NCBI RefSeq assembly: GCF_002906575.1
Contig: NZ_CP026313.1
Span: 1-64,000 of the forward strand
Direction: 5' to 3'
Origin: Salinigranum rubrum
GTDB taxonomy: Archaea > Halobacteriota > Halobacteria > Halobacteriales > Haloferacaceae
DNA: 64,000 nt
This document shows positions 8,271-57,087 of this stretch, piece by piece. The translations under genes were made by a program, and so were the position numbers. Below the pieces are notes generated by a model. It was given only the letters and a program-made list of their open reading frames with translations, had not been told where the DNA came from and made no database searches. Position 1 is the stretch's first letter. Each line of letters starts with the position of its first letter.

Positions 8271-8803
8271 GCTACCGCGTCAGCGTATTCGGTAGCAACT
8301 GGCTCCAGCGCTTGGAGGATGATCTCAGCTTCAAGCGGTGAGAGATCGAGTTCCCGGGCCGCAATGCGATGGTTGACCGTGCCGTCGACGTACTCGTAGG
8401 CGTACTCCAGGGCGACAGCAAGGCCGTCGAGGCCATGGCGCTCTATGTAGACATCGACGTCCTTGTTCTCGTCGCGACAGGCGACGGCTGCGATAAGTGC
8501 CGGCGTGATCGTTTGGGTCTCACCGTCCGTCGAGAGCGTGAGTGCAATCGACTCCGCGTCGTATTCGTACGGGCGCTGCTCACGGGTTTTCTCCACTAAG
8601 CCAGCGGTTTCGAGGTTCTGCACGTAGTCGTAGGCGGTCCCCTGCGGGATGTCGATCTCATCGACCATCTCGGAAACGGTGACCGGACCGTGTTGCAAGA
8701 TGTGGGCGTACAGTCGAGCTAGCGCCGGCGTGTCGAGGAGATCAGCGACCATCTGCAGTTGTTGAATAGGTGATCGATCTGACCGGGGAGGGGAGTGCGC
8801 CAT
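8267..8803 (-). CDS. Winged-helix antitoxin/regulator paired with PIN
   Basis: 178 residues. The N-terminal 85 residues form a winged helix (LARLYAHILQHGPVTVSEM, IPQGTAYDYVQNLETAGLV), resembling TrmB/ArsR-type DNA-binding domains. The C-terminal half (SLEPLEAEIILQAL-like) is helical and probably binds the toxin. It is the first gene of the two-gene operon with the PIN protein. A perfect palindrome 8 bp upstream (8811-8830) is a likely autoregulatory operator. Confidence 0.7.
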   Translation of the reverse strand: MAHSPPRSDRSPIQQLQMVADLLDTPALARLYAHILQHGPVTVSEMVDEIDIPQGTAYDYVQNLETAGLVEKTREQRPYEYDAESIALTLSTDGETQTITPALIAAVACRDENKDVDVYIERHGLDGLAVALEYAYEYVDGTVNHRIAARELDLSPLEAEIILQALEPVATEYADAVA

Positions 8804-8810
8804 CTCAATT

Positions 8811-8830
8811 ACGAATTATTCATAATTCGT
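8811..8830. promoter_or_regulatory. Palindromic operator of the HTH-PIN operon
   Basis: ACGAATTATTCATAATTCGT is a perfect 20-bp palindrome ending 8 bp before the start codon of the HTH gene. Position and symmetry suggest binding by the HTH dimer, the usual autoregulation of toxin-antitoxin operons. Confidence 0.6.
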
Positions 8831-9016
8831 GATAAGGGTTCCGGCGGCATATGGACCATGCGACTAATGTTCAGGAAATCTGTGTGTAGAGCTCTCTTTG
8901 GCCCGAAATCAGACTATGTGGAATGCGCAGATTACATTTCGCGATATCCAAGTCCTCTGGGAGCACCGAACCGTTCCTCAAGCGACGTAGACCGACACCA
9001 TCTCCAGTCCCGGTAG

Positions 9017-9418
9017 CTAGTCCTCCCCGAGATCGGAGAGGCGCATTTGAATTTCATCAGCATCAGCGTCTGAGAGCGCTTCGAGGCCGAACTGCACGAG
9101 GAGTGGGTAGAAATGCCGGTTCTTTTTGAACTCGTCACGACCCGCTTTCCGGAGTTTCAGCTGGGACTCAAGATACGTATCCTCCATGTCGTTGAGGATG
9201 CCGTCCGGGATGTAGATCGTCCGGCCGTTCCATTCGTCCTTGATGTTCGTTTTGCTCGTTTTCTTCGTTTCGCTCGGTGAGCTCGTTTCTTGCGTTCCAG
9301 TCGAGGGTCTGGTTTCAGTCGTCCCGGTCACCTCGCTTGTCTTGTTCGTTTCCTCCGCTTCCTCGTCGTCATCATAGTTGCCTTCGATACCTGAGGCGCT
9401 GCCCCAATCGTCGCTCAT
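9017..9418 (-). CDS. ParA-associated small protein (putative centromere binder)
   Basis: 133 residues: a Thr/Ser/Glu-rich, disordered N-terminus (1-60) and a C-terminal folded part beginning at DEWNGRTIYIPDGILNDMEDTYLESQLKLRKAGR, which resembles a short strand-helix-helix DNA-binding module of partition adaptors. Its start overlaps the parA stop by 4 bp (ATGA), so the two genes are translated together. By context it is the likely adaptor that binds the TTCGTT repeat field upstream of parA. A partial duplicate lies at 7490-7670. Confidence 0.65.
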   Translation of the reverse strand: MSDDWGSASGIEGNYDDDEEAEETNKTSEVTGTTETRPSTGTQETSSPSETKKTSKTNIKDEWNGRTIYIPDGILNDMEDTYLESQLKLRKAGRDEFKKNRHFYPLLVQFGLEALSDADADEIQMRLSDLGED

Positions 9419-10233
9419 GCTTCAACCTCCGTCGGCGGGGTTTTCTCGAAGGTCTCGTCAAGCAGGTCGGCGATGTCGTTGAACAGCGAGCGGGCGTCTT
9501 CGACGCGCTTGTTCTCCTTGCTGAAGCCGAAGATCGATACGCCTTCACCGATCGATTGCGAGAGATCCGTCCGCTTTGGGATCTCGAAGAGAGGCAGCGA
9601 GTATGCAGATCCGATTTCCTCGATCGTGCGCCGATGTTCGGCGTTCTGCTCGACTCGATTGCACACGATAGCCAGGCGGTTGATGTCTCCGTAGGCTGGT
9701 TCGAGGGACTGGAGCTGTTTCGCGAAAATTCGGAGACTATTGGCGTTGAGCTTCTCGGGGAGGACTGGGATGATAACGTTCCCTGTCGCAACGAGGGCGT
9801 TGTCGGTGAGAACATTGAGCGACGGTGGAGTGTCGACGACGATATAGTCGTAGTCCGTCTCGAGCTTGTCGAGAGTCATTCCCAGACGCTCTCGGCTCTT
9901 GGGCGCTTCGAGCAGCGTCTGGATGTTCTTATTGTTTGCGAGCTTCTCGCTGGCGGGGAGAATATCGAATTCTTCGTGCTCGACGATGATGTCGTTCACC
10001 GACTCCATCTGATCGAAGTCGAGCACGTCGAAGAGCGTGGTCCGATCGGTATCGTAGTACAGGTCGCTGTAGCCAAGCGAGCATGTGAGCCCACCGTGGT
10101 AGTCGATATCGACGAGAAGTACGTCGTGTCCTCGCGCGGCAAGTGCGCCGCCCGTATGGATGACGTCCGTTGTTTTCCCCGCACCTCCTTTCTGATTTGC
10201 TACGGTGATTCGTGAAGTGTTCGTATCGCTCAT
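9415..10233 (-). CDS. parA: ParA/Soj-type partition ATPase
   Basis: 272 residues from the ATG at 10233. A frame extending to 10362 also exists, but its extra residues are encoded by the repeat field and are low-complexity. The deviant Walker A ANQKGGAGKTT (12-22) with the signature Lys, the DIDYHGGLT switch (about 47), and DYIVVDTPPS (about 123) define a plasmid-type ParA. The ATPase drives segregation of DNA bound by its partner, encoded directly downstream. Repeats 5' of the gene are the candidate centromere. Confidence 0.9.
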   Translation of the reverse strand: MSDTNTSRITVANQKGGAGKTTDVIHTGGALAARGHDVLLVDIDYHGGLTCSLGYSDLYYDTDRTTLFDVLDFDQMESVNDIIVEHEEFDILPASEKLANNKNIQTLLEAPKSRERLGMTLDKLETDYDYIVVDTPPSLNVLTDNALVATGNVIIPVLPEKLNANSLRIFAKQLQSLEPAYGDINRLAIVCNRVEQNAEHRRTIEEIGSAYSLPLFEIPKRTDLSQSIGEGVSIFGFSKENKRVEDARSLFNDIADLLDETFEKTPPTEVEA

Positions 10234-41999: not shown

Positions 42000-42896
42000 C
42001 TACTCCCACCACCGACCGCGTTCGGGGAAATGCACGGTACTCCATCCCGTTAGGGCCACGGAGACGCGCCCATTGTACCAGTTCTTCGCCGCCCCGTGAA
42101 TGCGAACTCGTTCGCCCTCTTCGATCCAGGGTTGGTCACTCGCCACCCACGACGTCAGCTTCGTTTTCCCACTGTCGTCCTCGATGAGGCCGACTTGTTG
42201 AATGGCCGGCGAGCTGCTCTCCCAGAGCACCGTCACACGACCTTCGATGCTCACCTCTTTGCGATTGACGTCTTCGAGCTTTCCGATGGGAACCACCGTC
42301 CCGGGCGCAGTCTGCAACTCTTCGAACACCCCGACAACCGCGCTCATCAGGCCTTTCCCACCGACCACGGCTTCACCCAGCCGCCGACCAATCGCTGCTC
42401 GCGACCAGCCATCCAGCTTCTTCGCCAGCCGCATCGACTGCTTGTTCACCGCCGCCAACTGCTCCTGCGTGAGTTCTGCACGGGGATCACCTCGTTTCGG
42501 GTCAGCTATCGGATTCACGCTCGCCGCCCGCTTCTGGAACTCTGCACGCCGCTCAGCGCTCCGCTTCGCTGCGATATCTCGCGTTCGCTTCTCCCGACCT
42601 TCCTGCGTCCCCAGCTCTGCTTGGGCACTGATTCGCTCCAGCTCTGCCTCCCGCGCTCGAATGCGCTCTTCCTGTTCGAGGGTCGCACCGTAGATCCGCT
42701 CGTCACTGGTGTCGACCATCCCGTCCGGGTGGTTCGCATCGACCTTTGCCTGCACCTCCATCTGCACCGTCGCCTGAAACTCCGGGGTCTCATCGACGAC
42801 CTCGAAGCCGTCTTCGTCGACCGCCGCTTCGTCCGCCTTTTCGAATGCCTGTTCATCGACCGAAACCTCATTACCAAAGACGTTCTTACTTGACAT
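42000..42896 (-). CDS. OB-fold RPA-like ssDNA-binding protein
   Basis: 298 residues. The first 190 are acidic to mixed helical (EQEERIRAREAELERISAQA; ELTQEQLAAVNKQSMRLAKK; LGEAVVGGKGLMSAVVGVFE). The last 105 form an OB fold: EVSIEGRVTVLWESSSPAIQ, QVGLIEDDSGKTKLTSWVAS, EGERVRIHGAAKNWYNGRVS, the pattern of haloarchaeal RPA-related proteins. These bind ssDNA in replication or repair. A 19-bp perfect inverted repeat lies 92 bp upstream. Confidence 0.75.
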   Translation of the reverse strand: MSSKNVFGNEVSVDEQAFEKADEAAVDEDGFEVVDETPEFQATVQMEVQAKVDANHPDGMVDTSDERIYGATLEQEERIRAREAELERISAQAELGTQEGREKRTRDIAAKRSAERRAEFQKRAASVNPIADPKRGDPRAELTQEQLAAVNKQSMRLAKKLDGWSRAAIGRRLGEAVVGGKGLMSAVVGVFEELQTAPGTVVPIGKLEDVNRKEVSIEGRVTVLWESSSPAIQQVGLIEDDSGKTKLTSWVASDQPWIEEGERVRIHGAAKNWYNGRVSVALTGWSTVHFPERGRWWE

Positions 42897-44071: not shown

Positions 44072-45510
44072 TCAGCAGATGTACAGCAGCATCCAGAGTG
44101 GGAGTCGGAGGATGGAGTCGTCTGTTGTGTAGGGGTTGGTGATGTCCTCGCCGGCGACGATGCCTCGGGAGGCGTCGTCTGTTGAGTCGATGAATGCTGT
44201 TACAGCGGCGGCGGCGGCGTCTTCTCCGCGGCGTTGAGTGAGCCCAATGGGTAGGGGGTTGCCTTGGATGTCGAGGACGTATTCGACTGTGTGGCCGCTT
44301 TCGTCCCAGTACTGGACGGGCATGTCGATGTCTCTGTGATAGTTGAGGTTGAATGCGAGGCGGCGGAGGTGGTCGTAGACGACGGCTTCAGTGAGTTGGC
44401 GTCGAACGTCATCCGGTCTCGAGTCAGGATCGGTATCTGAGTAGGTGTTGAGGGCAATCACGAAGCGCGGGTCGATGAGGTACATGCGGAGCGAGCGGTG
44501 CCGTTCGTATCCCCATTTGTACGAGTGCGCGAGGATGAAGAAGTCCTCGAGGATGGCGAGGTATTTCCTGATAGTGCGGCGGTCGGTTTCGAGCAGTTCG
44601 GTCAGGTCGCTGAACTCGAACTCGCTTGTCGGGGTTTGCGCGACGAGTCCACAGAGCGTGTAGAGGTCGCCGGGGTCTTCGATCGAGTAGAATTCCAGGA
44701 CGTCGCGGAAGATCGTGAGTTGGAGTGCTTGCTTGATCGGGGCTTCTCCGCTCTCGTCTCGGAGTCCGCTTTCGAAGCGGTAGTTCTCGACGACCGACCT
44801 GGGGTGTGTGTCGGTTTCGGCGAGCTCGTTTTGGAGGGTCAAGCAACGGTCGACGACTGATGCGATATCGACGTCGTTGGAGCTGTCGAGCGAAGCGCGG
44901 ATCGGGTAGATGTAGTCGTCTTTATCGGGTTTGGGGACGCCGTGTTCGGCGTTGGCGTAGTCGATGAATTTCGGCGGGCGGAGGATCGAGTTCGTATGCT
45001 CGGTGTGCGATTCGAATCGGTCGAGGGTATCGTCTTTGACGGGGAGGGTGATCGCGAAGTGCGTGTCCGTAGTGTTCTTGAGGAGGGACTCGATCTGGTC
45101 TGCCCATCCGGCGATGTGGTGGGCGTCGTCGAGCAGGAAGTAGGTCGGTTGGTCGGTTTCGCTCGCGTTCCGCTTGATGTACGAGGAGTACCAGTCGTGG
45201 ACGTCGAGGATGAATCGGTCGTCATCGGTGCCGTAAAGGGGTTGTCGAGCGAGACGTACACGACGTTCGTGGGGGCCGCTTCTTCGTTGACGATGAGGTC
45301 GTGTATGATCTGGTAGAGCGTCGAGGTCTTTCCGGCGCCGTGCGCGCCTACGAGCGCGTAGAACCGTTCGTCCCGGACGAAGTCGTAGTGGTAATGGTAG
45401 TCGCTCCGGCGGGGTTTGCGGTAGGGCGTGTCGGCCGCGGTCGGGGGCTGGCTCGTTTCCCACCACGGGTTGTACAGCGGTAGGTCGCGCTGCAACCGTA
45501 CTGTCGACAT
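44072..45510 (-). pseudogene. DUF4143-type AAA+ ATPase, one frameshift
   Basis: The N-terminal 90 residues (from ATG 45510) contain FYALVGAHGAGKTSTLYQI (Walker A) and NVVYVSLDN. Near 45238-45241 one base seems missing from a C run (on the coding strand). The rest, from FILDVHDWYSSYIK, PTYFLLDDAHH (Walker B), through LTELLETDRRTIRKYLAILE (winged helix) to the C-terminal DUF4143-like nuclease-fold domain, stays open to 44072. With the base restored, the protein is about 480 residues. It is divergent from the Argonaute gene, only 110-310 bp away depending on start, and may be part of that locus or a neighbour. The break could be real or a base-calling error. Confidence 0.6.
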
Positions 45511-45822: not shown

Positions 45823-48437
45823 ATGAAGACGAAGACAGACATCGTCGACGGCGAACAGCTCACGATCACGCTCAAACTCACGGACGTCATCGAGATCGAC
45901 AAGGGCTCTCTCGCCCGGAAGGTCCTCTTCGAGGACGCCGACGGCGCGTCGGTCCCGCTCGTGGTATTCGAGAGCAACGACTGCGCGGCCTACGAGTGGG
46001 ACCGCGGCAGCTGGTACACGCTCACAGCAGCGAAGGGGAACTACTACGGCCCGTGGAACGAGCTCCAGCTGGTGCCGTCGTGGGACTTCGAAATCGAACG
46101 ACTCGACGAAGCCCCGGACGCGGCAAACGACACCGGCCCCCAGTGGAAATCGGCAGTGACGAAGGCACCGACGACGAGTTCGTGCCGGCGTCCTCGATGC
46201 GGAAGACCGAGCAGCCGACCGCCGACGGCGGCAACTCGCTCACCGGTCAGTTGCTCGCGCCTGGGAACTACCTCCTGCACTTCCCACTCGGTGACCTCTC
46301 AACGCTCGACGTCTACGCCTATGACCTCGACGTCCCTGGCGGGCTCGACCCCACGGACGACGACGTCCAGAACGGCGCGCTCGGGTTCACCGCCCGAGTC
46401 GCTGCGAACTACCGCTACCGCTCGGGCGCGCCCGTCACGGCGAACGGCCCGCTTAGCCTGTACGCCGTCGAAGAACTCACCGACGAGCTGTCGGTCGGCG
46501 ACTACACCGTGCGTCCCGAACGGCGGGACACCGAGACGCTCGCGGCGCAGTCGTTCGACGACCGCGAACCGCTCTGCGAACTCGTCAAGCAGGACATCAA
46601 GTCGGCGTTGAACGGGTCGTACGAGGTGAACGCGATCAACTCAATCGTCGAGCACTCGCCGCATTTTAGCGCGCCAAGCGGCGACTTCACTGCGTCGCGC
46701 GAGTACAAGTGCCGGGTCTGGGTCGACCCGGACGGTACCGTGCTGTGCGGCGTGGACGTCGGGTTCCACCTCGCCTCGACGTTCTCCGCCGCCGAATACG
46801 TCCGCCGGGGCTACGATATCGAAGGCGTCAGGGTCGAACACGACACCGAGGTCTACGCGAACTCCGCGACCGGGACCGTCGCCGAGCTCGCCGACACCGG
46901 CTACACCGACCGCGTCCCGGAGATGGGGTCGTCGATCGCGGCGTACCACCGCGACCACGGCTACGTCGATCCCGCAGTGATCGACAGCCTGACCGCCGGC
47001 GACCCTACCATGGCGCGCATCGACTACGGCTCGGCCACGGGGCTTCAGGTCCTCGAGCTCTGCCGCGTCGTCCCGTCGCTCGACCAGCTTAAACGCGTCG
47101 ACGCCGACTTCCACAGCCAGTTCCAGCGAAGGACTCGGCTCGCTCCGAAACAGCGGTTCTCGGCCGCATCGTCGTTCGTCGAATCGATCGGGACCACGCC
47201 GGCGCTCGGCCTCACCCTCGAGGCGCGCCCGGTGAACGACTGCTACTCCGAGCTCGCCGTCAACACCGGAACGAACAACCTGCGGTTCCGCGCCGACCGA
47301 ACCGCGTCGTACGGATTGCGCGGCCTGAACGACTACGGCGTCTACCAGCGCCCCGAGTCGTTCGACCTGCTCGCGGTCTACCCGGACCAGCAGGAAGAAG
47401 AGAGCCAGGAGTTCTTGCGACTCCTCATCACGACGCTGAACGATTACGGCGCGGACCCGACCAGGCTCGACCAGGAGGCGTACACGCTCGGGTCGGAGTT
47501 CGAGTACACGCACGTCGCGTCGGACGCCGCGGAGTACGACGGCGTCGTCGCCGTCGTTCCCGACCCCGACTGGCTGGCGCAGTACCCCGATATCGCCGAT
47601 CCGTACCCGGAGTTCAAGCGGCAGTGGGGGCAAGCGAAGGTCCCGTCGCAGATGGTGCTGGTGTCGAACCTCGACGAGGAGCGGTACCAGGCGAACATCG
47701 CGTCCGGTCTGGTCGCGAAGTGCGGCGGCATCCCGTGGCGTATCCACGACGTCCCGGGCGACACAGACGTCTTCATCGGGCTCGACGTCACGTACGACCT
47801 CGACACCGGCCTGCACCGTGGCGCGAGCGCGAACGTCGTGCTCGCCGACGGCACGATCCTCGCGTCACAGACCGTGTCGCAGCAGGCCGGCGAGACGTTC
47901 GAAGTCGACGACGTCGTCGACATCATCAAGACCCTCCTGAAGGTGTACGCCAGCGAGGAGAACCGCTCGCCGAACCACATCGTCATCCACCGCGACGGCC
48001 AGTTCTACCTCGACGTCGACGACCTCGTCGACCGGCTCGACAGGGGCGGCGACCTGATCCCGAAGGTCGACCTGGTCGAGATCCGCAAGAGCGGGAACCC
48101 CCGGATTGCGAACTACACCGGCGACGCGTTCGAGGTCGCGAACAAAGGTACGGGATTCGTCTCGAACCACACCGACCACGCCTACCTCGCCACCACGGGC
48201 AAGCCCGAACGCCTCCCGGGGACGCCACAGCCGATCCAGCTCATCAAGCGGCACGGCTCGACCGACCTACAGACGCTGACGCGGCAGGCGTACTGGTTGT
48301 CGGAGGCGCACGTCGGCTCGGTGAGCCGCTCGACGCGGCTCCCGATCACGACGTACTACGCGGATCTGTGCGCCGACCACGCCCGCAAGGGCTACCTGCT
48401 GAACGGCGAGCTCATCCGCGGGGTGCCGTACGTATGA
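45823..48437 (+). CDS. ago: NgAgo-like long Argonaute with N-terminal OB fold (frame broken at 46137)
   Basis: The N-terminal 95 residues (from ATG 45823; an alternative ATG at 45622 adds a poor-quality leader) are an RPA-like OB fold: LKLTDVIEIDKGSLARKVLF and DRGSWYTLTAAKGNYYGPWN. A C run at 46137-46141 then puts the rest one base out of frame. The core runs from 46142 to 48437, with a long open PAZ/MID part, then PIWI. PIWI tetrad candidates all remain: VFIGLDV (Asp 47784-47786), GETFEVDD (Glu 47892-47894), IHRDG (Asp 47994-47996) and TYYADLCADH (Asp 48363-48365). Joined, it is about 871 residues, close to 887 for NgAgo as I remember it. It would bind guide nucleic acids and cut matching DNA. 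ATG 46197 could start a separate core. Head of the operon. Confidence 0.8.
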
Positions 48438-48545
48438 CGACGCGACGCCAGCGCGCCGGCCCGTCGTGCGGCGGCGGATTCGGGTCGGGTCTCGTTTCGG
48501 TGCGAGGCGTTTTGCCGACCGGTACGCGAGGTGGACCGAACTAGT

Positions 48546-51500
48546 ATGGCGTCGGTCCCGCTCCGTCCGCCAGCCGAGATCCCGGACGACGTGGCGGCGA
48601 AGCCGTCGGTCGCGCCGTCGCGGCTCGGACGGTTCGTCAACCTCGACGGCTGCCCGCAGTGGTTCCAGTACGTGTTCGACGACAAGTACCGCAACGAACG
48701 GAGCGCGGAGCACGACTACGTGGAGGCATTCCGGCCGCTGAACATCCTGCTCGCGAAGGACGGCAACGACTTCGAGGACGACGTCGTCGACGCGCTCCGC
48801 GAGCACGCCAACGTCCGCGACCACGACGACATCGGGGAGTGGGCCGACTCCAGAGGAATGCTCCTGGATGCGTTCGACGCCGCGTTCGACGCCGGCGACG
48901 ACCGGACGCCCGTGGCCGTGACGCAGGCCCGACTCGGCAACCACCTCGAAGCCTGGCCGGTGACGGGCGACGCCGACGTCCTCGCGTGCTGGCGCCTCCC
49001 GCCCGACGATGACGACAACCAGACCGACCGCGTCGGGCTGCGGTTCCGCGTGCTCGACGTGAAGGCCGCGCACGAGGAGAAGACGTACCAGCAGATCCAG
49101 GTCGCGTGCTACACGCTCCTGCTCCGGCAGTTCCTCGAACACGTCGGCGTGGACTACCCGTACGTAATCGAGGGCGGCATCATCCTTCGGACCGACGAGT
49201 TCGACGACGCCGCCCCGGACACGCTGCCGTCGTTCGACCTCGAGCACCGCGAACTCGACGTCCGCCGACTCCTCGAAGCGGGCGGCCCGCTCGACAAGCT
49301 CTTCGGCGAGGCCCCGGGCGACGTGCGGTACCAGCTCGACGGGAAGTGCTTCGGGTGCGCGTACAAGGAAGCGTGCTTCACGGAGTCAATCGAGTCAGGG
49401 TCGACGGCGCTGCTCGGGCTGTCTCGGAACGACCAGGCCGTCCTCGCCGACCACGGCATCGACACGGTCGAGGACCTGGCGCGGCTCGCGTATCCGGAGC
49501 CGGACGCCGAGCCGTACGATTACGACGACCTCGAACCGGCGATGGCGCACCGCGAGACGTATCGTGCGTTGCTCGACGAGCCCGGGATCTCCGAGCGGCT
49601 CCAACGACACATCCAGGAGGCGCAGTCGTTCATGGGGCAGTTCGCGCCCGGGACGACGTTCGCTGCTGGCGGGACGAACCCGGTCTGGCTGTCAGGGAGC
49701 GGCAACGGCCACCTCCCCGAGGACGACCCGCCGTTCGAGATGGAGCTCCCGTTCGAGCGCGGCTCGATGATCCGTGTCTACCTGAATGTCCAGCGCGACC
49801 ACCGGTACGACCGCGTCAACGCCGTCGGCGGGTACGTCTCGGTCTCGAACGTCGACCACCCAGTGACGTTCGGCCACCTCGCCGCCGCGGTCCCGGACAC
49901 GGTCGCGGACGCCACTAACCTCGAAGCCGACGTCCTCGGCGACGCGCTCGGAAGCCTGTTCGACGCGATCGACGCACTCGGTGCCGCCATGGAGACAGAC
50001 GACGCGCCGGTGCATTTCTACCTCTACACGAACAGCGAGTACGAAGCGCTCGTCGAGGCGCTCACGCGGCACGGCGACGTCGACGGCGCGCCCGCGCTCC
50101 GCGACCTGCTCGGTCAGCGCGCCACCATCAGTGGCCGCGGCGACGACGCGTTCGACCACGACGAGCAAGCGATGGTGTCGATCGTGCAGCGCGAGCTCCG
50201 CGAACGACGCGCGCTCGGCGTCCCGACGGCGGGGCTGCTGCCCGCCCTCCGCGTCTGCGGCGGCGGCGAGGACGCACTCTACCGCCGCAACTGGACATAC
50301 ACCCGGTCGACCGGCGAAGAAATCGACTTGCAGCGCGCGTTCCGGTTCAAGCTGTTCGACCACCTGGTGAGGGCGCGACGCGACCCGCCAGGGCTCGCGA
50401 TGTACGCCGACGACGACCGCGACATGATGTATCCGTCGCGGCCACGCGACCGCGGCGAAGTCCCGCTCGAATACGTGTGGGCGGCGTACGATGTCCTGAC
50501 GCCTGACTGGGCGGAGGAAGTCCAGGAGGCGTCCGGGATAGTCCAGCCCGTCGACCCGTTCCGGTGGGTCGACGAAGACGAACAGGAGACGCGGATCGCG
50601 CCGGAGGACGTTGAGGCGCTCGTGGCGCGGTTCGCGCACGCGGTCGCCCACATCGAGCGGTCGATCACGCGGCGGAACTACCGCCTCCCGAAGCGACCGC
50701 TCCGACTCGGCGACCTCCGTGCGTTCACGCTCGGCGAGAGCCACACGGCGCGCGCAGCCGACGAGTTTCTCGCCCTCGAGTACCGCTCCGGTCGGCACGA
50801 CCAGCTCCGGACGTACGGCCTCCCGATGCGGCAACGCGTCCAGAACGGCGACGCGATCCCGATGGTGGTCACGGACGCCTGGGTCGACGAAGACGACGGC
50901 ACGCTCCACGTCGACGGCCACCTCCCGTACGACTCGGACCTGTTCGAGGACGGCGACAGGGTCGCTCGGGCGTGCCGGCTCAAAGGGACGTCGGGGTCGA
51001 CGATGGGGTCGTGGGTGGTCGCGAACCGACTCGACGGCAACGGCGACCCGCTCGACTCGACGGATCCGCGGAACATCGAGCACGGCCCGGCGCTCACGGT
51101 CGAGGAACTCGACATCGAGGCGCGGTCGATCCACCTGACCGCGTTCCCGGGCGGGAGCGGGCAGACCGAGTTCCAGACCTGGCACCGCGCCTGGACCGTC
51201 GACCCGAAGGAGGCGGCGGACACGAACGCGGTGCTGTTCGCCGAACGCGAGGTGTTCGTCCTCGACAAGCAGACCGACGACCTCGTCGCCCAGCGGTCGT
51301 ACAACCTGCTGCGCGAAGCACGGCACAACCCGCTCGCCGGACTGCTCGACGACCTCGCCGACGGCCGCGTAGTGTCCCCGACCACGGACACAGTCTCGGA
51401 AGCGGCACTCGCGGACTACGTCGACTGGGCAGTCCCGGACGGCGACGGCGGCGCGGAACGGTGGACGGCGGACCCGCCGCCGAATCAGGGGCAGCGCCGG

Positions 51501-53021
51501 TTCATCGGCGAGCACCGCGCCCGGTTGGCGCTCCTGCAGGGCCCGCCGGGGACGGGCAAGACGTCGGGTGCGCTCGCTCACGCGACGCTCGCCCGCGTCC
51601 GGTCGTTCGCGGCGGACGGCGCCGGCTGTACGGGCGTGGTGGCGGGCGAGTCGAACAAAGCCGTCGACGAGGTCCTCGAGGACGTCCACGACGCCTTGGT
51701 CGCGTACCGGAACCAGGGCGACGAAGCCCACGACACGGGGTGTGACGACCTCCTGGACGGCCTCGAGCTCGTGCGGCTGACATCCGACGTCCCAGAGGAC
51801 GACCTCGCGCACGTCACGTACCTCGACTACCACGAGCACGACGACGAACTCCGCCGCATCGTCGAACGGGTCCGGACCGAGACCGACGACCTCACGCTGG
51901 TGTTCGCGACGCCGGCGCGGCTCTACAAGCTCGTCGATTCGTTCTCCGCGGACACGTCGCCGGCGGAGTGGCTCGCGGGCGGCGCGTCGTTCTTCGACCT
52001 GCTCGCGGTCGACGAGGCGTCGATGATGCGGCTCCCGTCGTTCCTCACCGTCGGGGCGTACCTCCGCGACGACGCCCAGATCCTGGTGGCGGGCGATCAG
52101 CGGCAGATGTCGCCGGTTCGACAGCACGGCTGGGACGACGAGTACCGCCGCACCATCCAGGAACGCGTGCCGTACCTGTCGGCGCTCGACTACTGCCGGT
52201 TGCTCCGCGGCGACGACGTCGACGACGTCGGCGACGACCACTGCGTCGTCCGCGGGACCGCGGAGTTCCCGCTGTACCAGCTCGAGCGGAGCTACCGGTG
52301 TCACGAAGACGTCGCGGCGTTCCTCGCCGAACACGTCTACGCGCAGGACGGCATCCCGTACTACTCCGAGGAGGACGCGACCGTGCGGCAGCCCGCGGCC
52401 GTGAGTGACGGCGTCGCGCGTGTGCTTTGTGACCCCGACGTTCTCGACGCGTCGGGCGATGAGCCGCACGCGCTCACACTCATCATTCACGACGAAGCCG
52501 CGTCGCGGCAGTCGAACGCGGTCGAAGCCGCGATCGGGGCGTCCGTCGCCGAAGCATCGCACGCTGACGACGCGGTCGGGATCGTCACGCCGCACAACGC
52601 CCAACGCGGCCTCCTCGACACGTACCTCGACGACGTCGAATGCGACACGGTCGAGCGGTACCAGGGCGGCCAACGCCCGGTCATCTTGGTGTCGGCGACG
52701 GCGTCCGACCCGGACTTCGTCAAGGTCGAATCGGAGTTCCTCCTGAACCCGAACCGCCTGAACGTCGCGATGTCGCGGATGCAGCGCGGCCTGATCGTCG
52801 TCGCCTCCACACAGGTGTTCGACGTGATCCCGCCGCACGTCGAGGAGTACGAACGAGCCGGGCTTTGGAAAGGCCTGTTCGCCGACCTCGGCGTCCTCGA
52901 CCGCGACCCGGCGTGGGCCGGCACGCTCGACGAGTTCGTTGGACCGACCGACCTCGGCGGGCTCGACCCCGCACTCGACACCGACCTCGAAGTCTACACA
53001 CTCACCCAGGACCACCCATGA
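48546..53021 (+). CDS. RecB/Cas4-like nuclease fused to Dna2-like SF1 helicase
   Basis: 1491 residues from ATG 48546, with GAGGTG 13 bp upstream. The N-terminal 320 carry a RecB-family nuclease with an iron-sulphur cluster: C36 in DGCPQWF, the motif VLDVKAAHEEKTYQQIQVAC near 168, and GKCFGCAYKEACF near 266-276, as in Cas4, AddB and Dna2. A TM0106-like HhH-type linker follows (VLADHGIDTVEDLARLAYPE). The C-terminal 500 form an SF1B helicase: GPPGTGKTSG near 1000, FDLLAVDEAS near 1155, VAGDQRQMSPV near 1183, and TVERYQGGQRPVILVS plus NRLNVAMSR. It likely unwinds and degrades DNA ends. It follows Argonaute by 108 bp; Mre11 follows 127 bp later. Confidence 0.85.
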   Translation: MASVPLRPPAEIPDDVAAKPSVAPSRLGRFVNLDGCPQWFQYVFDDKYRNERSAEHDYVEAFRPLNILLAKDGNDFEDDVVDALREHANVRDHDDIGEWADSRGMLLDAFDAAFDAGDDRTPVAVTQARLGNHLEAWPVTGDADVLACWRLPPDDDDNQTDRVGLRFRVLDVKAAHEEKTYQQIQVACYTLLLRQFLEHVGVDYPYVIEGGIILRTDEFDDAAPDTLPSFDLEHRELDVRRLLEAGGPLDKLFGEAPGDVRYQLDGKCFGCAYKEACFTESIESGSTALLGLSRNDQAVLADHGIDTVEDLARLAYPEPDAEPYDYDDLEPAMAHRETYRALLDEPGISERLQRHIQEAQSFMGQFAPGTTFAAGGTNPVWLSGSGNGHLPEDDPPFEMELPFERGSMIRVYLNVQRDHRYDRVNAVGGYVSVSNVDHPVTFGHLAAAVPDTVADATNLEADVLGDALGSLFDAIDALGAAMETDDAPVHFYLYTNSEYEALVEALTRHGDVDGAPALRDLLGQRATISGRGDDAFDHDEQAMVSIVQRELRERRALGVPTAGLLPALRVCGGGEDALYRRNWTYTRSTGEEIDLQRAFRFKLFDHLVRARRDPPGLAMYADDDRDMMYPSRPRDRGEVPLEYVWAAYDVLTPDWAEEVQEASGIVQPVDPFRWVDEDEQETRIAPEDVEALVARFAHAVAHIERSITRRNYRLPKRPLRLGDLRAFTLGESHTARAADEFLALEYRSGRHDQLRTYGLPMRQRVQNGDAIPMVVTDAWVDEDDGTLHVDGHLPYDSDLFEDGDRVARACRLKGTSGSTMGSWVVANRLDGNGDPLDSTDPRNIEHGPALTVEELDIEARSIHLTAFPGGSGQTEFQTWHRAWTVDPKEAADTNAVLFAEREVFVLDKQTDDLVAQRSYNLLREARHNPLAGLLDDLADGRVVSPTTDTVSEAALADYVDWAVPDGDGGAERWTADPPPNQGQRRFIGEHRARLALLQGPPGTGKTSGALAHATLARVRSFAADGAGCTGVVAGESNKAVDEVLEDVHDALVAYRNQGDEAHDTGCDDLLDGLELVRLTSDVPEDDLAHVTYLDYHEHDDELRRIVERVRTETDDLTLVFATPARLYKLVDSFSADTSPAEWLAGGASFFDLLAVDEASMMRLPSFLTVGAYLRDDAQILVAGDQRQMSPVRQHGWDDEYRRTIQERVPYLSALDYCRLLRGDDVDDVGDDHCVVRGTAEFPLYQLERSYRCHEDVAAFLAEHVYAQDGIPYYSEEDATVRQPAAVSDGVARVLCDPDVLDASGDEPHALTLIIHDEAASRQSNAVEAAIGASVAEASHADDAVGIVTPHNAQRGLLDTYLDDVECDTVERYQGGQRPVILVSATASDPDFVKVESEFLLNPNRLNVAMSRMQRGLIVVASTQVFDVIPPHVEEYERAGLWKGLFADLGVLDRDPAWAGTLDEFVGPTDLGGLDPALDTDLEVYTLTQDHP

Positions 53022-53148
53022 ACTCCAACCACACTACCACGACACCGACGGACGCACAGCCAACCCGACCACACACCCGCGACGCCCCGACCTCGGTGGC
53101 GGTGCCGCCCGGTCGTTCCGGCCTAGAGGCGGGCGCGGAGGTGGTTCG

Positions 53149-54408
53149 ATGACGGTCGTGCTGCACACCTCGGACACCCATCTGGGCTACCAACAGTACC
53201 ACCTCGAGGAGCGCGCCGCGGACTTCGCGGCGGCGTTCGAGGCTGTGATCGACGAAGCGGTCGAGCGCGGAGTCGACGCGGTCGTCCACAGCGGCGACAT
53301 GTTCCACGACTCGAACCCGCGGATCGGGCCGCTGCTCCACGCGATCCGGCAGCTCCGCCGGCTCGCAGACGCCGATATCCCGTTCCTGATGGTGTCCGGG
53401 AACCACGACACGACGCGCGATGACGCCTGGGTCTCGGTATTCACCGAGGTCGCGGACGCGGTCCACCTCGGCCGCGACCCGACCGTGGTCGGCGACGTCG
53501 CGCTGTACGGCCTCGACTACCACACGCCGACGTACCGCGACCACCTGACGTACGAGTTCGAGTCGAACGACGCCGACCACGCCGCGCTCGTCGCGCACGG
53601 GTCGTTCTCGCCGCTGGTCGCGTACGGCGACTGGTCGATCGAGGACGTGTTGTCGTCGTCGACGGTCGCGTTCGACGCCGCGCTGCTCGGCGACGACCAC
53701 ACACCGATCTTCGAAGAGGTGGGTGGGACGTTCACGACGTACCCCGGTTCGACCGAGCGGACGATGGCGGACCAGCGCGACGACCGCGGGTTCACGCTCG
53801 TCAGGTTCGACGACGACGCCCGACCCGAGAGCGACCGCATCGACCGCGACGCGGTCTGCCCGCCCGGCGTCTCGTACGATCGGGTCCCGCTCGACACTCG
53901 GCCGCACGTCTACATCGACATCGAGGCTGAGGAAGACGACGCGGTGGCCGAACGCGTCCGTGACGAGCTCGGCGATCACGACGTCGCGGGCACCGTGGTC
54001 GCGGTCACGATCGACGGGGAGGGCGAGCCGGTCGCGGCCGGTCCGCTCGAAGCGTACGCGAAAGAGGACCTCGGCGCCCTCGAAGCGCGCGTGTCGGATC
54101 GGCGGCGCCGCGGGAGCGACCGCGTCGCGATAGACGTGTCGTTCGCCGACCCGGACGACGCCGTCGAACGCCGCCGACGCACGCTCGGACTGAGCGCTGT
54201 CGTCGACGAACTCGAGCAACAGGTCCGCGCCGACACCCCGGTCGACTCGAACCTCCGCGACCGTGTCGAGGAAGACGTCGAGGACCGCATCGAGGACGAC
54301 CCGGCGGCGTTCGACCCGGTCGAACCGGAGGTCACCGAAGAAGAGCTCAGAGAGCAAGCGGACGGCCTCGCCGTAGACGCGAGCCAACCCACCACCCAGG
54401 AGGACTAA
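53149..54408 (+). CDS. mre11: Mre11-like (SbcD-type) nuclease
   Basis: 419 residues from ATG 53149 (GGAGGTGG is 5 bp upstream). Calcineurin-like phosphoesterase motifs are complete: HTSDTHLGYQQ (about 6-16), VVHSGDMFHDSNP, MVSGNHDTTRDD, ALVAHGSFSPL and LLGDDHTPIF. Mre11 is the manganese-dependent exo/endonuclease of the MR complex, here directly followed by Rad50 (3-bp gap). The last 130 residues (EEDVEDRIEDDPAAFDPVEP) are acidic with a helical stretch suited to Rad50 binding. The normal haloarchaeal chromosomal mre11 is expected elsewhere; this copy is dedicated to the Argonaute block. Confidence 0.9.
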   Translation: MTVVLHTSDTHLGYQQYHLEERAADFAAAFEAVIDEAVERGVDAVVHSGDMFHDSNPRIGPLLHAIRQLRRLADADIPFLMVSGNHDTTRDDAWVSVFTEVADAVHLGRDPTVVGDVALYGLDYHTPTYRDHLTYEFESNDADHAALVAHGSFSPLVAYGDWSIEDVLSSSTVAFDAALLGDDHTPIFEEVGGTFTTYPGSTERTMADQRDDRGFTLVRFDDDARPESDRIDRDAVCPPGVSYDRVPLDTRPHVYIDIEAEEDDAVAERVRDELGDHDVAGTVVAVTIDGEGEPVAAGPLEAYAKEDLGALEARVSDRRRRGSDRVAIDVSFADPDDAVERRRRTLGLSAVVDELEQQVRADTPVDSNLRDRVEEDVEDRIEDDPAAFDPVEPEVTEEELREQADGLAVDASQPTTQED

Positions 54409-54411
54409 CCC

Positions 54412-57087
54412 ATGGAGTTCACACGCATCTCGCTCGAATCGTTCAAGTGCTTCGTCGACGAGACGATCGACCTGACCGGCGGCGTCACGGCGATGCACGG
54501 CGCGAACGGCGCGGGCAAGACCACCATCCTCGAAGCGTGCTTCTTCGCGCTGTACGGCGCCGACGTCCCCGACGTCAATCTCACCGACGTCATCGAGAAA
54601 GGGACGGACGAAGCCGTCGTCGAGCTGTGGTTCACGCACCTCGGCGAGGAGTACTACATCCGCCGCCGCGTCCGCGAGTATTCGTCGCAGACGACTCACG
54701 ACGTCGAACTCCGGACGCCGAAAGCAACGATCGAAGGACCCGGCGACGTCGCTGACGCAATCAAGTCGCTGTTCCGGCTCGACGCGAACGCGTTTCTGAA
54801 CTGCGCGTACGTCCGGCAGGGCGAGATCAACAAGCTGATCGGGGCGAGCGCGAGCGAGCGGCAGAACATGATCGACTCGCTGCTCCAGCTCGGCAAGCTC
54901 GACGACTACGAAGACCGGATGACGATCACGCGGAACGGCGTCCGGAGCATCAAGGACGCGAAGGCCGGGGAGCTGAAAAACGTCGAGGGAGACATCGCCG
55001 ACCTCGTGGAACGTGACCTCGAAAAGCAGCTCGGGCGTATCGTCGCCGAACTCGATGGGCTCAACGATGAGATCGACGAGATCGACGACGACATCGAAAC
55101 GGTCACTGAGGAGCAGCGCGACGCGACGAGCGAACTCGAAGAGATCGAAGAGCTGGAGGAACGGATCGACGACCTGGAGCAAGAGGTCGGTGAAGCAGAC
55201 GAAAAGGTCGGAGAGTTGAAGGACAGAAAGGAGGGCCTCGAATCCGATCGGGAAGCGGCAGCCGAGCGTCTCAACGAGCTCGAAACGGAGGCCGAACACA
55301 AGCTGGAGGACACCTCGGTCGAGGACCTCGACGGTGACGCCGTCGAAGAGCGCCTCGAGGACGTTATGGAGCGGCATGGTCGGATCGATTCAGCGCTTGT
55401 GGAAGCTCAAGAACAGGTGTCGCGCTTCGAGGAGGCTGTAGCAAACGCTCGGGACGAAGCGAGTGACCTCGACGACGAGGCTTCAGGCCTCGAAGCTGAT
55501 GCTGAGGGGCGTCGGGGCGAGGCTCGCGGACTCGAAGAGGACCTCGCTGACCCACGCTCCCGGCTCGACGAGGTCGAGGATGAGATGGACGAGATCGAAT
55601 CATCGTTCGACGAGAGCGCCACGAATCGCGACGAGGTGGAGGCGTTCGTCGAGTCGAAGAACGAACAACTCGAGGCAGCCGAAAGGCGGTATGGGGAGAT
55701 CCGCGATGAGCGAAGCGGTGTCAAAAAACGCATCGAGGACGCCGAAGAACTGCTGGAGGAGGGTCTGTGCCCCGAGTGCGGCCAAGAAGTTCACGGCGCT
55801 CCGTCTGTCTCGAACCTGGAGGACGACCGCAAAGCCCTCGAGGAGCTCGAAGACGACCTGAGCGAGGCGGAGGACACCGTTGAGGAGCGAGAGGAAGCGG
55901 TCCGTACGGCGCGCGACCTCGAACAGCAGGCGTCCCGGTACGAGGAACTCGAGGAACGTCGGGGCGACCTGAATCGCGAAATCGAGGCTAGCGAACAGCG
56001 GATCGAGTCAATCAGGAACGAAGTGGATGAGTTCGACGCCGAGGCCGCGGCGGTTCGCGAACGCGCTGGGTTCCACCGTGCGGCGATCCCGCATATCGAA
56101 GCGCGGAAGGAGCGGGACGACCGGGCGCAAGAGTACCTCAAGGACGAGGCTCACCAGTTGCACAGGGAGTGGCTCGCGCTCGAAGCCGCTGACGGGGCGC
56201 TCGGTGAGGCGGAACAGAAGCGCGACGAACACGAGCGACTCGGTGAACGACTCACTGACGACGTCGAACCACAGATTGAGTACTGGGAAGACGAACGAGA
56301 CGAGCTCGAAGGCGAACTTGATGACGCACGGGCTGAGCTGGACCCGAGCCGGGTCGACCGTCTCGAACGTCGTCGTGAGGGTGCTGCACGCTGGCGTGAC
56401 GTGCTGGAGCGACGGCGCGAACGCCTGGGTGACGATCGAACAGAATTGCAGTCCGAGAAAGGCGGGGTCGAGAACCAGCTCGAAGAACTCGGCCGGAAGC
56501 GCGAGCAACGAGACGCCCTCGAGACGCAAGTCGATCGGTTAGCGGCAGCCGTCCAGCAGTGCGACGACGTCGAGCAGATGTACCGCGAGCTCCGCGAGGA
56601 TTTGCGGACGCGGAATGTCGACGAGCTCGAACGGCTCCTCAACGAGCTGTTCGACCTGCTGTACCAGACGGATTCGTACGAGCACTTCGAGCTGTCGGAC
56701 TCGTACGAACTGACGGTGTACGAGAAGTCCGGCGAGGCGCTCGACCCCACCGACCTGTCGGGTGGCGAGCGCGCGCTCTTCAATCTCGCGCTGCGGTGCG
56801 CGATCTACCAGCTCCTCACCGAGGGGCTGAGCGGGCAGGCGCCGCTCCCGCCGCTCATCCTCGACGAACCGACGGTCTACCTCGACTCCCAGCACGTCAA
56901 CGAGTTAAAGTCGCTGATCTCGCGGATGGAGGAACTCGGCGTCGACCAGATCATCGTGGTGTCGCACGAGGACGGCCTGCTCAACCAGGTCGGCGAACGC
57001 GTCGAGATCCAGCAGGACAGCTCGACGAACCGCTCTCACGCCACCACCGAATCGCGCGACCTCCTCACCTCGGGGCTCGAAGAATGA
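54412..57087 (+). CDS. rad50: Rad50-like SMC-family ATPase
   Basis: 891 residues. N-terminal half ATPase with GANGAGKTT (about 31-39) and the Q-loop region ending VRQGEINKLIGA. Long coiled coils flank a zinc hook, CPECGQEVHG (about 452). The C-terminal half has the signature LSGGERALFNLALR (about 781) and Walker B LILDEPTVYLD (about 816). Rad50 dimers tether DNA ends and license Mre11. It starts 3 bp after mre11. The operon ends here: the next gene lies on the other strand and overlaps the last 52 bp of this one. Confidence 0.92.
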   Translation: MEFTRISLESFKCFVDETIDLTGGVTAMHGANGAGKTTILEACFFALYGADVPDVNLTDVIEKGTDEAVVELWFTHLGEEYYIRRRVREYSSQTTHDVELRTPKATIEGPGDVADAIKSLFRLDANAFLNCAYVRQGEINKLIGASASERQNMIDSLLQLGKLDDYEDRMTITRNGVRSIKDAKAGELKNVEGDIADLVERDLEKQLGRIVAELDGLNDEIDEIDDDIETVTEEQRDATSELEEIEELEERIDDLEQEVGEADEKVGELKDRKEGLESDREAAAERLNELETEAEHKLEDTSVEDLDGDAVEERLEDVMERHGRIDSALVEAQEQVSRFEEAVANARDEASDLDDEASGLEADAEGRRGEARGLEEDLADPRSRLDEVEDEMDEIESSFDESATNRDEVEAFVESKNEQLEAAERRYGEIRDERSGVKKRIEDAEELLEEGLCPECGQEVHGAPSVSNLEDDRKALEELEDDLSEAEDTVEEREEAVRTARDLEQQASRYEELEERRGDLNREIEASEQRIESIRNEVDEFDAEAAAVRERAGFHRAAIPHIEARKERDDRAQEYLKDEAHQLHREWLALEAADGALGEAEQKRDEHERLGERLTDDVEPQIEYWEDERDELEGELDDARAELDPSRVDRLERRREGAARWRDVLERRRERLGDDRTELQSEKGGVENQLEELGRKREQRDALETQVDRLAAAVQQCDDVEQMYRELREDLRTRNVDELERLLNELFDLLYQTDSYEHFELSDSYELTVYEKSGEALDPTDLSGGERALFNLALRCAIYQLLTEGLSGQAPLPPLILDEPTVYLDSQHVNELKSLISRMEELGVDQIIVVSHEDGLLNQVGERVEIQQDSSTNRSHATTESRDLLTSGLEE

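What the first reader, a model, noticed from the sequence alone, without database searches (positions are those of the whole stretch)
46137..46141. Argonaute frame breaks at a C run exactly between OB fold and core
The OB-fold frame and the Argonaute-core frame meet at GGCCCCCAG, where one extra C (or a -1 slip) restores a single 871-residue protein. The break falls in the linker and not in a domain. ATG 46197 could start the core separately, so OB fold and core might be two proteins. All four PIWI residues stay intact, which argues against long-term decay.
Basis: partly seen in the sequence, partly recalled or inferred. Interest (0 to 1): 0.7.

Follow-up and report, generated by a model that had tools for sequence, protein, structure and literature searches.

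The report
Argonaute frame break, probably assembly error
A haloarchaeal plasmid-type contig carries a normal OB-fold-fused Argonaute gene whose apparent split is most likely a single cytosine lost from a C run during assembly: the same genome shows many such one-base losses, and the closest relatives have one uninterrupted gene.

Summary
The frame break is in the sequence as described. The OB-fold frame (from ATG 45823) and the Argonaute-core frame (to 48437) meet near the C5 run at 46137-46141, one base short of a single 871-residue protein. Biologically it is most likely not real.

(1) The closest homologue found (G377: OB 69%, core 72% identical, same operon) has OB and core in one open frame. 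So do nearly all other OB-bearing relatives. None breaks in the linker.

(2) The same assembly carries 16 other homology-confirmed one-base-missing breaks in 680 kb of chromosome, 10 of them at G/C runs of 4 or more. They fall inside ABC transporter, Lhr-type helicase and AI-2E permease genes. A congener's assembly shows 4 in 1,795 kb. At that rate three are expected on this contig, and three were found.

(3) The divergent ATPase gene 0.9 kb away is broken in the same way; its G377 homologue is intact.

A genuine recent frameshift remains possible. Programmed slippage and two separate proteins are poorly supported. The protein is a catalytically complete (DEDD), OB-fused haloarchaeal long pAgo, a known kind. 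Its downstream partners are unusual: a Dna2-like nuclease-helicase and a second Mre11-Rad50 instead of AgaP.

The parts
45823..46140 (+). N-terminal OB-fold domain of the Argonaute, OB frame (106 aa up to the break)
   Evidence: Aligned with 11 relatives. AlphaFold2 model pLDDT 87, five strands with a helix between strands 3 and 4. Foldseek hits are OB/ssDNA-binding proteins: 2ken (MM0293 OB domain), POT1, hSSB. PDB profile hits 2kbn and Sulfolobus SSB.
46137..46141 (+). C5 run where the frames meet; one base short of a continuous frame
   Evidence: The linker between OB residue 103 and core residue 2 is 68 nt here (not a multiple of 3) and 102 nt in G377.
46142..48437 (+). Argonaute core (N-PAZ-MID-PIWI) in the second frame, ending at the stop codon
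   Evidence: Pfam Piwi E 1.2e-19; PADLOC pAgo PDLC02388 E 1.4e-273 over 19-746; PDB CpAgo and CbAgo-like chains; invariant DEDD.
46197..46199 (+).
   Evidence: Present here; no Met at this place in intact homologues.
44072..45510 (-). Divergently transcribed AAA/DUF4143-type ATPase gene, also frame-broken at 45238-45241 (one C short at AACCCCTTT on the minus strand)
   Evidence: the G377 homologue is in one 491-aa frame.
48549..53021 (+). Dna2-like protein: RecB/Cas4-like nuclease part plus SF1 helicase
   Evidence: Pfam AAA_12/AAA_11; NCBIfam TIGR03491 and TIGR00376 weak; 72% homologue beside the G377 Ago.
53152..54408 (+). Second, divergent Mre11
   Evidence: NCBIfam Mre11_Halo 416 bits, below its 550-bit cut-off; the canonical copy is at C1:1052908-1053993, 624 bits.
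54412..57087 (+). Divergent Rad50
   Evidence: NCBIfam Rad50_Halo 775 bits, below its 1000-bit cut-off.

Best explanation
The split is an artefact of the genome assembly. The cell most likely has one continuous gene for an 871-residue OB-fold-Argonaute, and the assembly lost one C, most simply from the C run 46137-46141. Shown: the frames, the intact homologues and the genome-wide excess of one-base losses at G/C runs. Inferred: that these losses, including this one, are consensus errors and not mutations. The protein is then an ordinary active-site-complete long pAgo. Its OB domain probably binds ssDNA and its PIWI domain cuts guided targets (inferred from family knowledge).
For: Closest homologue G377: OB at C4:7851-8159 and core at C4:5514-7748, both minus strand, in phase and in one 938-aa open frame. 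Other OB-bearing relatives are fused in one frame. Census: in 680 kb of this genome's chromosome, 17 homology-confirmed mid-gene breaks, 16 with one base missing and 10 with a G/C run of 4 or more at the site (14% expected by chance). In the congener G166, 7 breaks in 1,795 kb, 4 missing and 3 extra. The excess of missing-base breaks has P about 1.5e-6, and the run association P about 2e-5. Broken chromosomal genes carry single Pfam domains across the junction (ABC_tran, DEAD, BPD_transp, AI-2E). At the chromosomal rate about 3.0 breaks are expected on this 129-kb contig, and three were seen: Ago, the ATPase, and a MaoC-like gene at C5:112408 with an A6 run. Literature: deletions after runs of 4-5 bases are the typical gene-breaking error of long-read assemblies (PMC12007338).
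Against: No reads could be inspected, and the sequencing method of this genome is unknown to me. Slippage in C runs is also a common natural mutation. Two of the three breaks on the contig lie within 0.9 kb, in neighbouring, probably linked genes. Argonaute genes in a few other haloarchaea are broken at other places, so real loss does occur in this family. About 40% of the chromosomal breaks are not at long runs.
Confidence: 0.78

Rival explanations
1. The frameshift is real: a recent one-base deletion in the C run inactivated (or trimmed to a short OB peptide plus an unexpressed core) the Argonaute of this strain. The neighbouring ATPase was lost the same way, so the module is decaying.
For: Two breaks in adjacent, divergently transcribed genes. 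Broken Argonautes exist elsewhere: Halosimplex carlsbadense and Halarchaeum acidiphilum break in the core, G046 has an in-frame TAA, and G075 and G121 are fragmented.
Against: No stop codons in either frame and no substitutions at catalytic sites. Both breaks are single missing Cs, exactly the error type enriched genome-wide. The density on this contig equals the chromosomal background. The downstream genes are open.
Confidence: 0.17
2. OB domain and Argonaute core are made as two proteins, the core starting at ATG 46197.
For: ATG 46197 exists in frame. A sister clade of haloarchaeal Argonautes (G080, G025, G023, G120, G056, G161) has no OB domain and starts at the core, so an OB-less core is viable.
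Against: All closer relatives are fused. No Met is conserved at this place. In-frame coding signal continues upstream of ATG 46197 back to the C run. The OB frame would run on for about 157 non-conserved residues before its stop at 46611.
Confidence: 0.03
3. Programmed -1 frameshifting at GGCCCCCAG joins the two frames during translation.
For: A P-site tRNA on CCC could re-pair with CCC one base back.
Against: Not a canonical X XXY YYZ heptamer. The downstream fold is unremarkable (z -1.2 and -1.6). Every intact relative encodes the fusion in one frame, so the event would be unique to this genome. The same loss is seen at many unrelated genes here.
Confidence: 0.02

Closest known systems
OB-fold-bearing long prokaryotic Argonautes (Ryazansky et al. 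2018, PMC6299218, which lists 8 long pAgos with an N-terminal OB-fold, SSF50249)
   Same: N-terminal OB domain fused to a long pAgo with PAZ, MID and a catalytic DEDX PIWI
   Different: Here the two parts are in different frames in the assembly; the relatives are continuous
Haloarchaeal APAP systems (pAgo plus PLD protein AgaP, Cheng et al. 2024, PMC11442185; Natrinema pellirubrum)
   Same: Homologous Argonaute with an intact tetrad; same divergent ATPase neighbour in many loci
   Different: No AgaP here; a Dna2-like protein, Mre11 and Rad50 follow instead
G377 locus (Halobacteriales, other family): ATPase, OB-Ago, Dna2-like, Mre11
   Same: Same gene order and 56-72% identity
   Different: Both Ago and ATPase genes are in single open frames
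Homopolymer deletion errors in long-read assemblies (PMC12007338)
   Same: One base missing after runs of about 4-6 identical bases, breaking genes
   Different: The sequencing platform of this genome was not established here

Membership tests
Long catalytically active pAgo | PIWI domain with DEDX tetrad | tested here: met
   Pfam Piwi 1.2e-19; D530, E566, D600, D723 invariant
Long catalytically active pAgo | Full-length N-PAZ-L2-MID-PIWI core | tested here: met
   PADLOC pAgo model aligned 19-746 of 746; CpAgo structure aligned 153-724; individual PAZ and MID subdomains not modelled
OB-fused haloarchaeal pAgo | N-terminal OB domain | tested here: met
   AF2 model and Foldseek hits
OB-fused haloarchaeal pAgo | OB and core in one reading frame | tested here: not met
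   Frames differ in this assembly; met in G377 and others
APAP system | Adjacent AgaP (PLD) gene | tested here: not met
   The next gene is a Dna2-like protein, not a PLD protein; AgaP is present in most relatives
Programmed -1 frameshift gene | Slippery heptamer plus downstream structure, conserved in relatives | tested here: not met
   No canonical heptamer (read), fold z -1.2 to -1.6, relatives in one frame
Assembly homopolymer error | Genome-wide excess of one-base losses at runs | tested here: met
Assembly homopolymer error | Reads contradict the consensus at the site | not testable with these tools
   No reads available

The most novel reading that the evidence does not exclude
The break is real in the strain and functional: OB domain and Argonaute core are separate, or occasionally fused by slippage, decoupling ssDNA binding from cleavage.
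Probability: 0.04. Interest if true: 0.55.

Novelty: not a real feature. Interest (0 to 1): 0.13.

Why it matters
It removes a false lead (a 'split' or frameshifted Argonaute). It also warns that apparent pseudogenes in this genome should not be trusted without reads, since roughly one conserved gene per 40 kb appears broken by a single missing base. What remains worth attention is the operon behind it: an OB-Argonaute next to a Dna2-like nuclease-helicase and a second Mre11-Rad50.

Tried and rejected
1) Programmed frameshift: no heptamer, fold unremarkable, not conserved. 2) Separate start at ATG 46197: not conserved. 3) A first frameshift census by direct two-hit tblastn between the congeners was too noisy, because antisense shadow frames and leader read-through gave pairs in both directions. 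It was replaced by the codon-model switch plus homology across the junction. 4) Local placement of the lost base by alignment works for most chromosomal breaks but not for the Ago linker, which is too variable; coding score was used instead. 5) Homopolymer length spectra of the two genomes are similar and uninformative. 6) The first genome-contig scan with the core alone found nothing; the alignment-based scan worked. Viral contigs gave no match. 7) No paper naming the sequencing method of this genome was found.

Full report
WHERE IT IS. The window is the first 64 kb of contig C5 (129,442 bp) of a 4.97-Mb, 6-contig haloarchaeal genome. Its genus is that of G166, whose contig C4 has the length (145,366 bp) and the match coordinates of the Salinigranum marinum ZS-10 plasmid in PLSDB.

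OBSERVATION. The OB part is read from ATG 45823 in one frame, and the Argonaute core is read in the frame one base back, to the stop at 48437. A codon-usage model trained on both genomes switches frame at 46143. Both frames stay open far beyond the switch, 465 nt and 562 nt. Coding score alone allows a break anywhere in about 46118-46150, and the C5 run is the natural site. One additional base gives 871 codons. The catalytic residues D530, E566, D600 and D723 of the core are invariant in an 11-member alignment.

WHAT THE PARTS ARE. The core is a long pAgo: Pfam Piwi, the best PADLOC pAgo model over the whole core, and CpAgo and CbAgo-type structures. The N-terminal part is a true OB fold. AlphaFold2 gives pLDDT 87 with five strands and a helix between strands 3 and 4. 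Foldseek finds the M. mazei MM0293 OB domain, POT1 and SSB proteins. OB-bearing long pAgos have been described (PMC6299218), and haloarchaeal pAgos of this kind act in defence with a PLD partner (PMC11442185).

HOMOLOGUES. In the family search, relatives G166, G038, G138, G035 and G004 (52-54% identity) and G040, G132, G042, G071 and G013 (about 40%) carry OB and core in one open frame of 843-895 aa. A scan of GTDB genomes gave 24 loci. All with an OB domain are continuous across the linker; one of them (Halosimplex carlsbadense) breaks inside the core. Halarchaeum acidiphilum, without a detected OB match, also breaks inside the core. The closest homologue, G377, was found by its Dna2-like neighbour. 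Its core is 72% and its OB 69% identical. The two hits lie in phase (8159 minus 7748 is 411 nt, 137 codons) in one 938-aa open frame. Its divergent ATPase is also in one 491-aa frame, with the N part at 8495-8758 and the C part at 8753-9925, while the window's ATPase is broken. The fusion is therefore the ancestral and general state, and the break is private to this genome.

THE SAME FAULT ELSEWHERE IN THIS ASSEMBLY. The ATPase break lies at SLDNP|LYGTDDDRF, where AACCCCTTTACGG is again one C short. I then took 680 kb of the chromosome and, as control, 1,795 kb of the congener G166. I looked for frame switches whose joined product aligns across the junction to another single-frame sequence. 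This genome has 17 on its chromosome, 16 with one base missing. Ten have a G/C run of at least 4 at the best-fitting site; 14% would be expected. G166 has 7, of which 4 are missing and 3 extra. The excess has P about 1.5e-6 for missing-base breaks, and the run association P about 2e-5. The genes hit are conserved and otherwise intact: sugar and ribose ABC permeases, ABC ATPases (broken inside the LSGGQ motif at GGGGG), an Lhr-type DEAD helicase and an AI-2E permease. Single Pfam domains span the junctions. A third break on C5 is in a MaoC-like gene at an A6 run. Three on 129 kb equals the chromosomal rate, which predicts 3.0. Deletion at runs of 4-5 bases is the known gene-breaking error of long-read assemblies (PMC12007338). 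The caveats are that a few of the 17 may be natural gene fusions or fissions, that the comparison sets are incomplete, and that no reads or method statement were available.

MECHANISM. The best reading is that one C was lost in the consensus, and the gene product is one OB-Argonaute. A real frameshift cannot be excluded, since Argonaute loss is not rare in haloarchaea: H. carlsbadense, Halarchaeum, G046 with an in-frame TAA, G075 and G121 fragments. Two-protein and programmed-slippage readings lack conservation, a conserved start codon, a slippery heptamer and a notable structure.

VERDICT. As biology it is probably not a feature. The unusual thing nearby is the operon itself. No AgaP follows; instead there is a Dna2-like protein and a second, divergent Mre11 and Rad50 (below NCBIfam cut-offs, while the chromosome holds a canonical Mre11). 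The Ago, Dna2-like and Mre11 part of this arrangement is shared with G377.

Noticed in passing
44072-45510 (-): The AAA/DUF4143-type ATPase gene is also broken, one C short at 45238-45241; its G377 homologue is in one frame.
   Followed up: yes
46142-57087: Ago is followed by a 1490-aa Dna2-like nuclease-helicase and a second, divergent Mre11-Rad50 instead of AgaP. G377 shares Ago, Dna2-like and Mre11; G425 has Dna2-like plus Mre11 with its Ago on another contig. A possible Argonaute coupling to DNA-end processing, not found in the papers searched.
   Followed up: partly
C5:112224-112758 (L035, outside the window): MaoC-like dehydratase gene broken at an A6 run, another one-base-missing break.
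   Followed up: partly
G000 chromosome, e.g. C1:143834, 156388, 196730, 762905, 2548555, 2550728, 2562894: Many conserved genes apparently frame-broken at or near G/C runs; the whole assembly needs polishing before pseudogene claims.
   Followed up: yes
L175 and L196: Argonaute cores of Halosimplex carlsbadense and Halarchaeum acidiphilum are frame-broken at different places (about residues 226 and 250 of the core query used).
   Followed up: partly
L023 (G121) 878-1357: An OB-like ORF lies directly upstream of, and out of frame with, an Argonaute ORF that is itself interrupted; possibly an independent split or decayed gene.
   Followed up: no
42000-42896 (-): RPA-like OB-fold protein (NCBIfam replication factor A, E 5.5e-15) near the Argonaute operon.
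   Followed up: no
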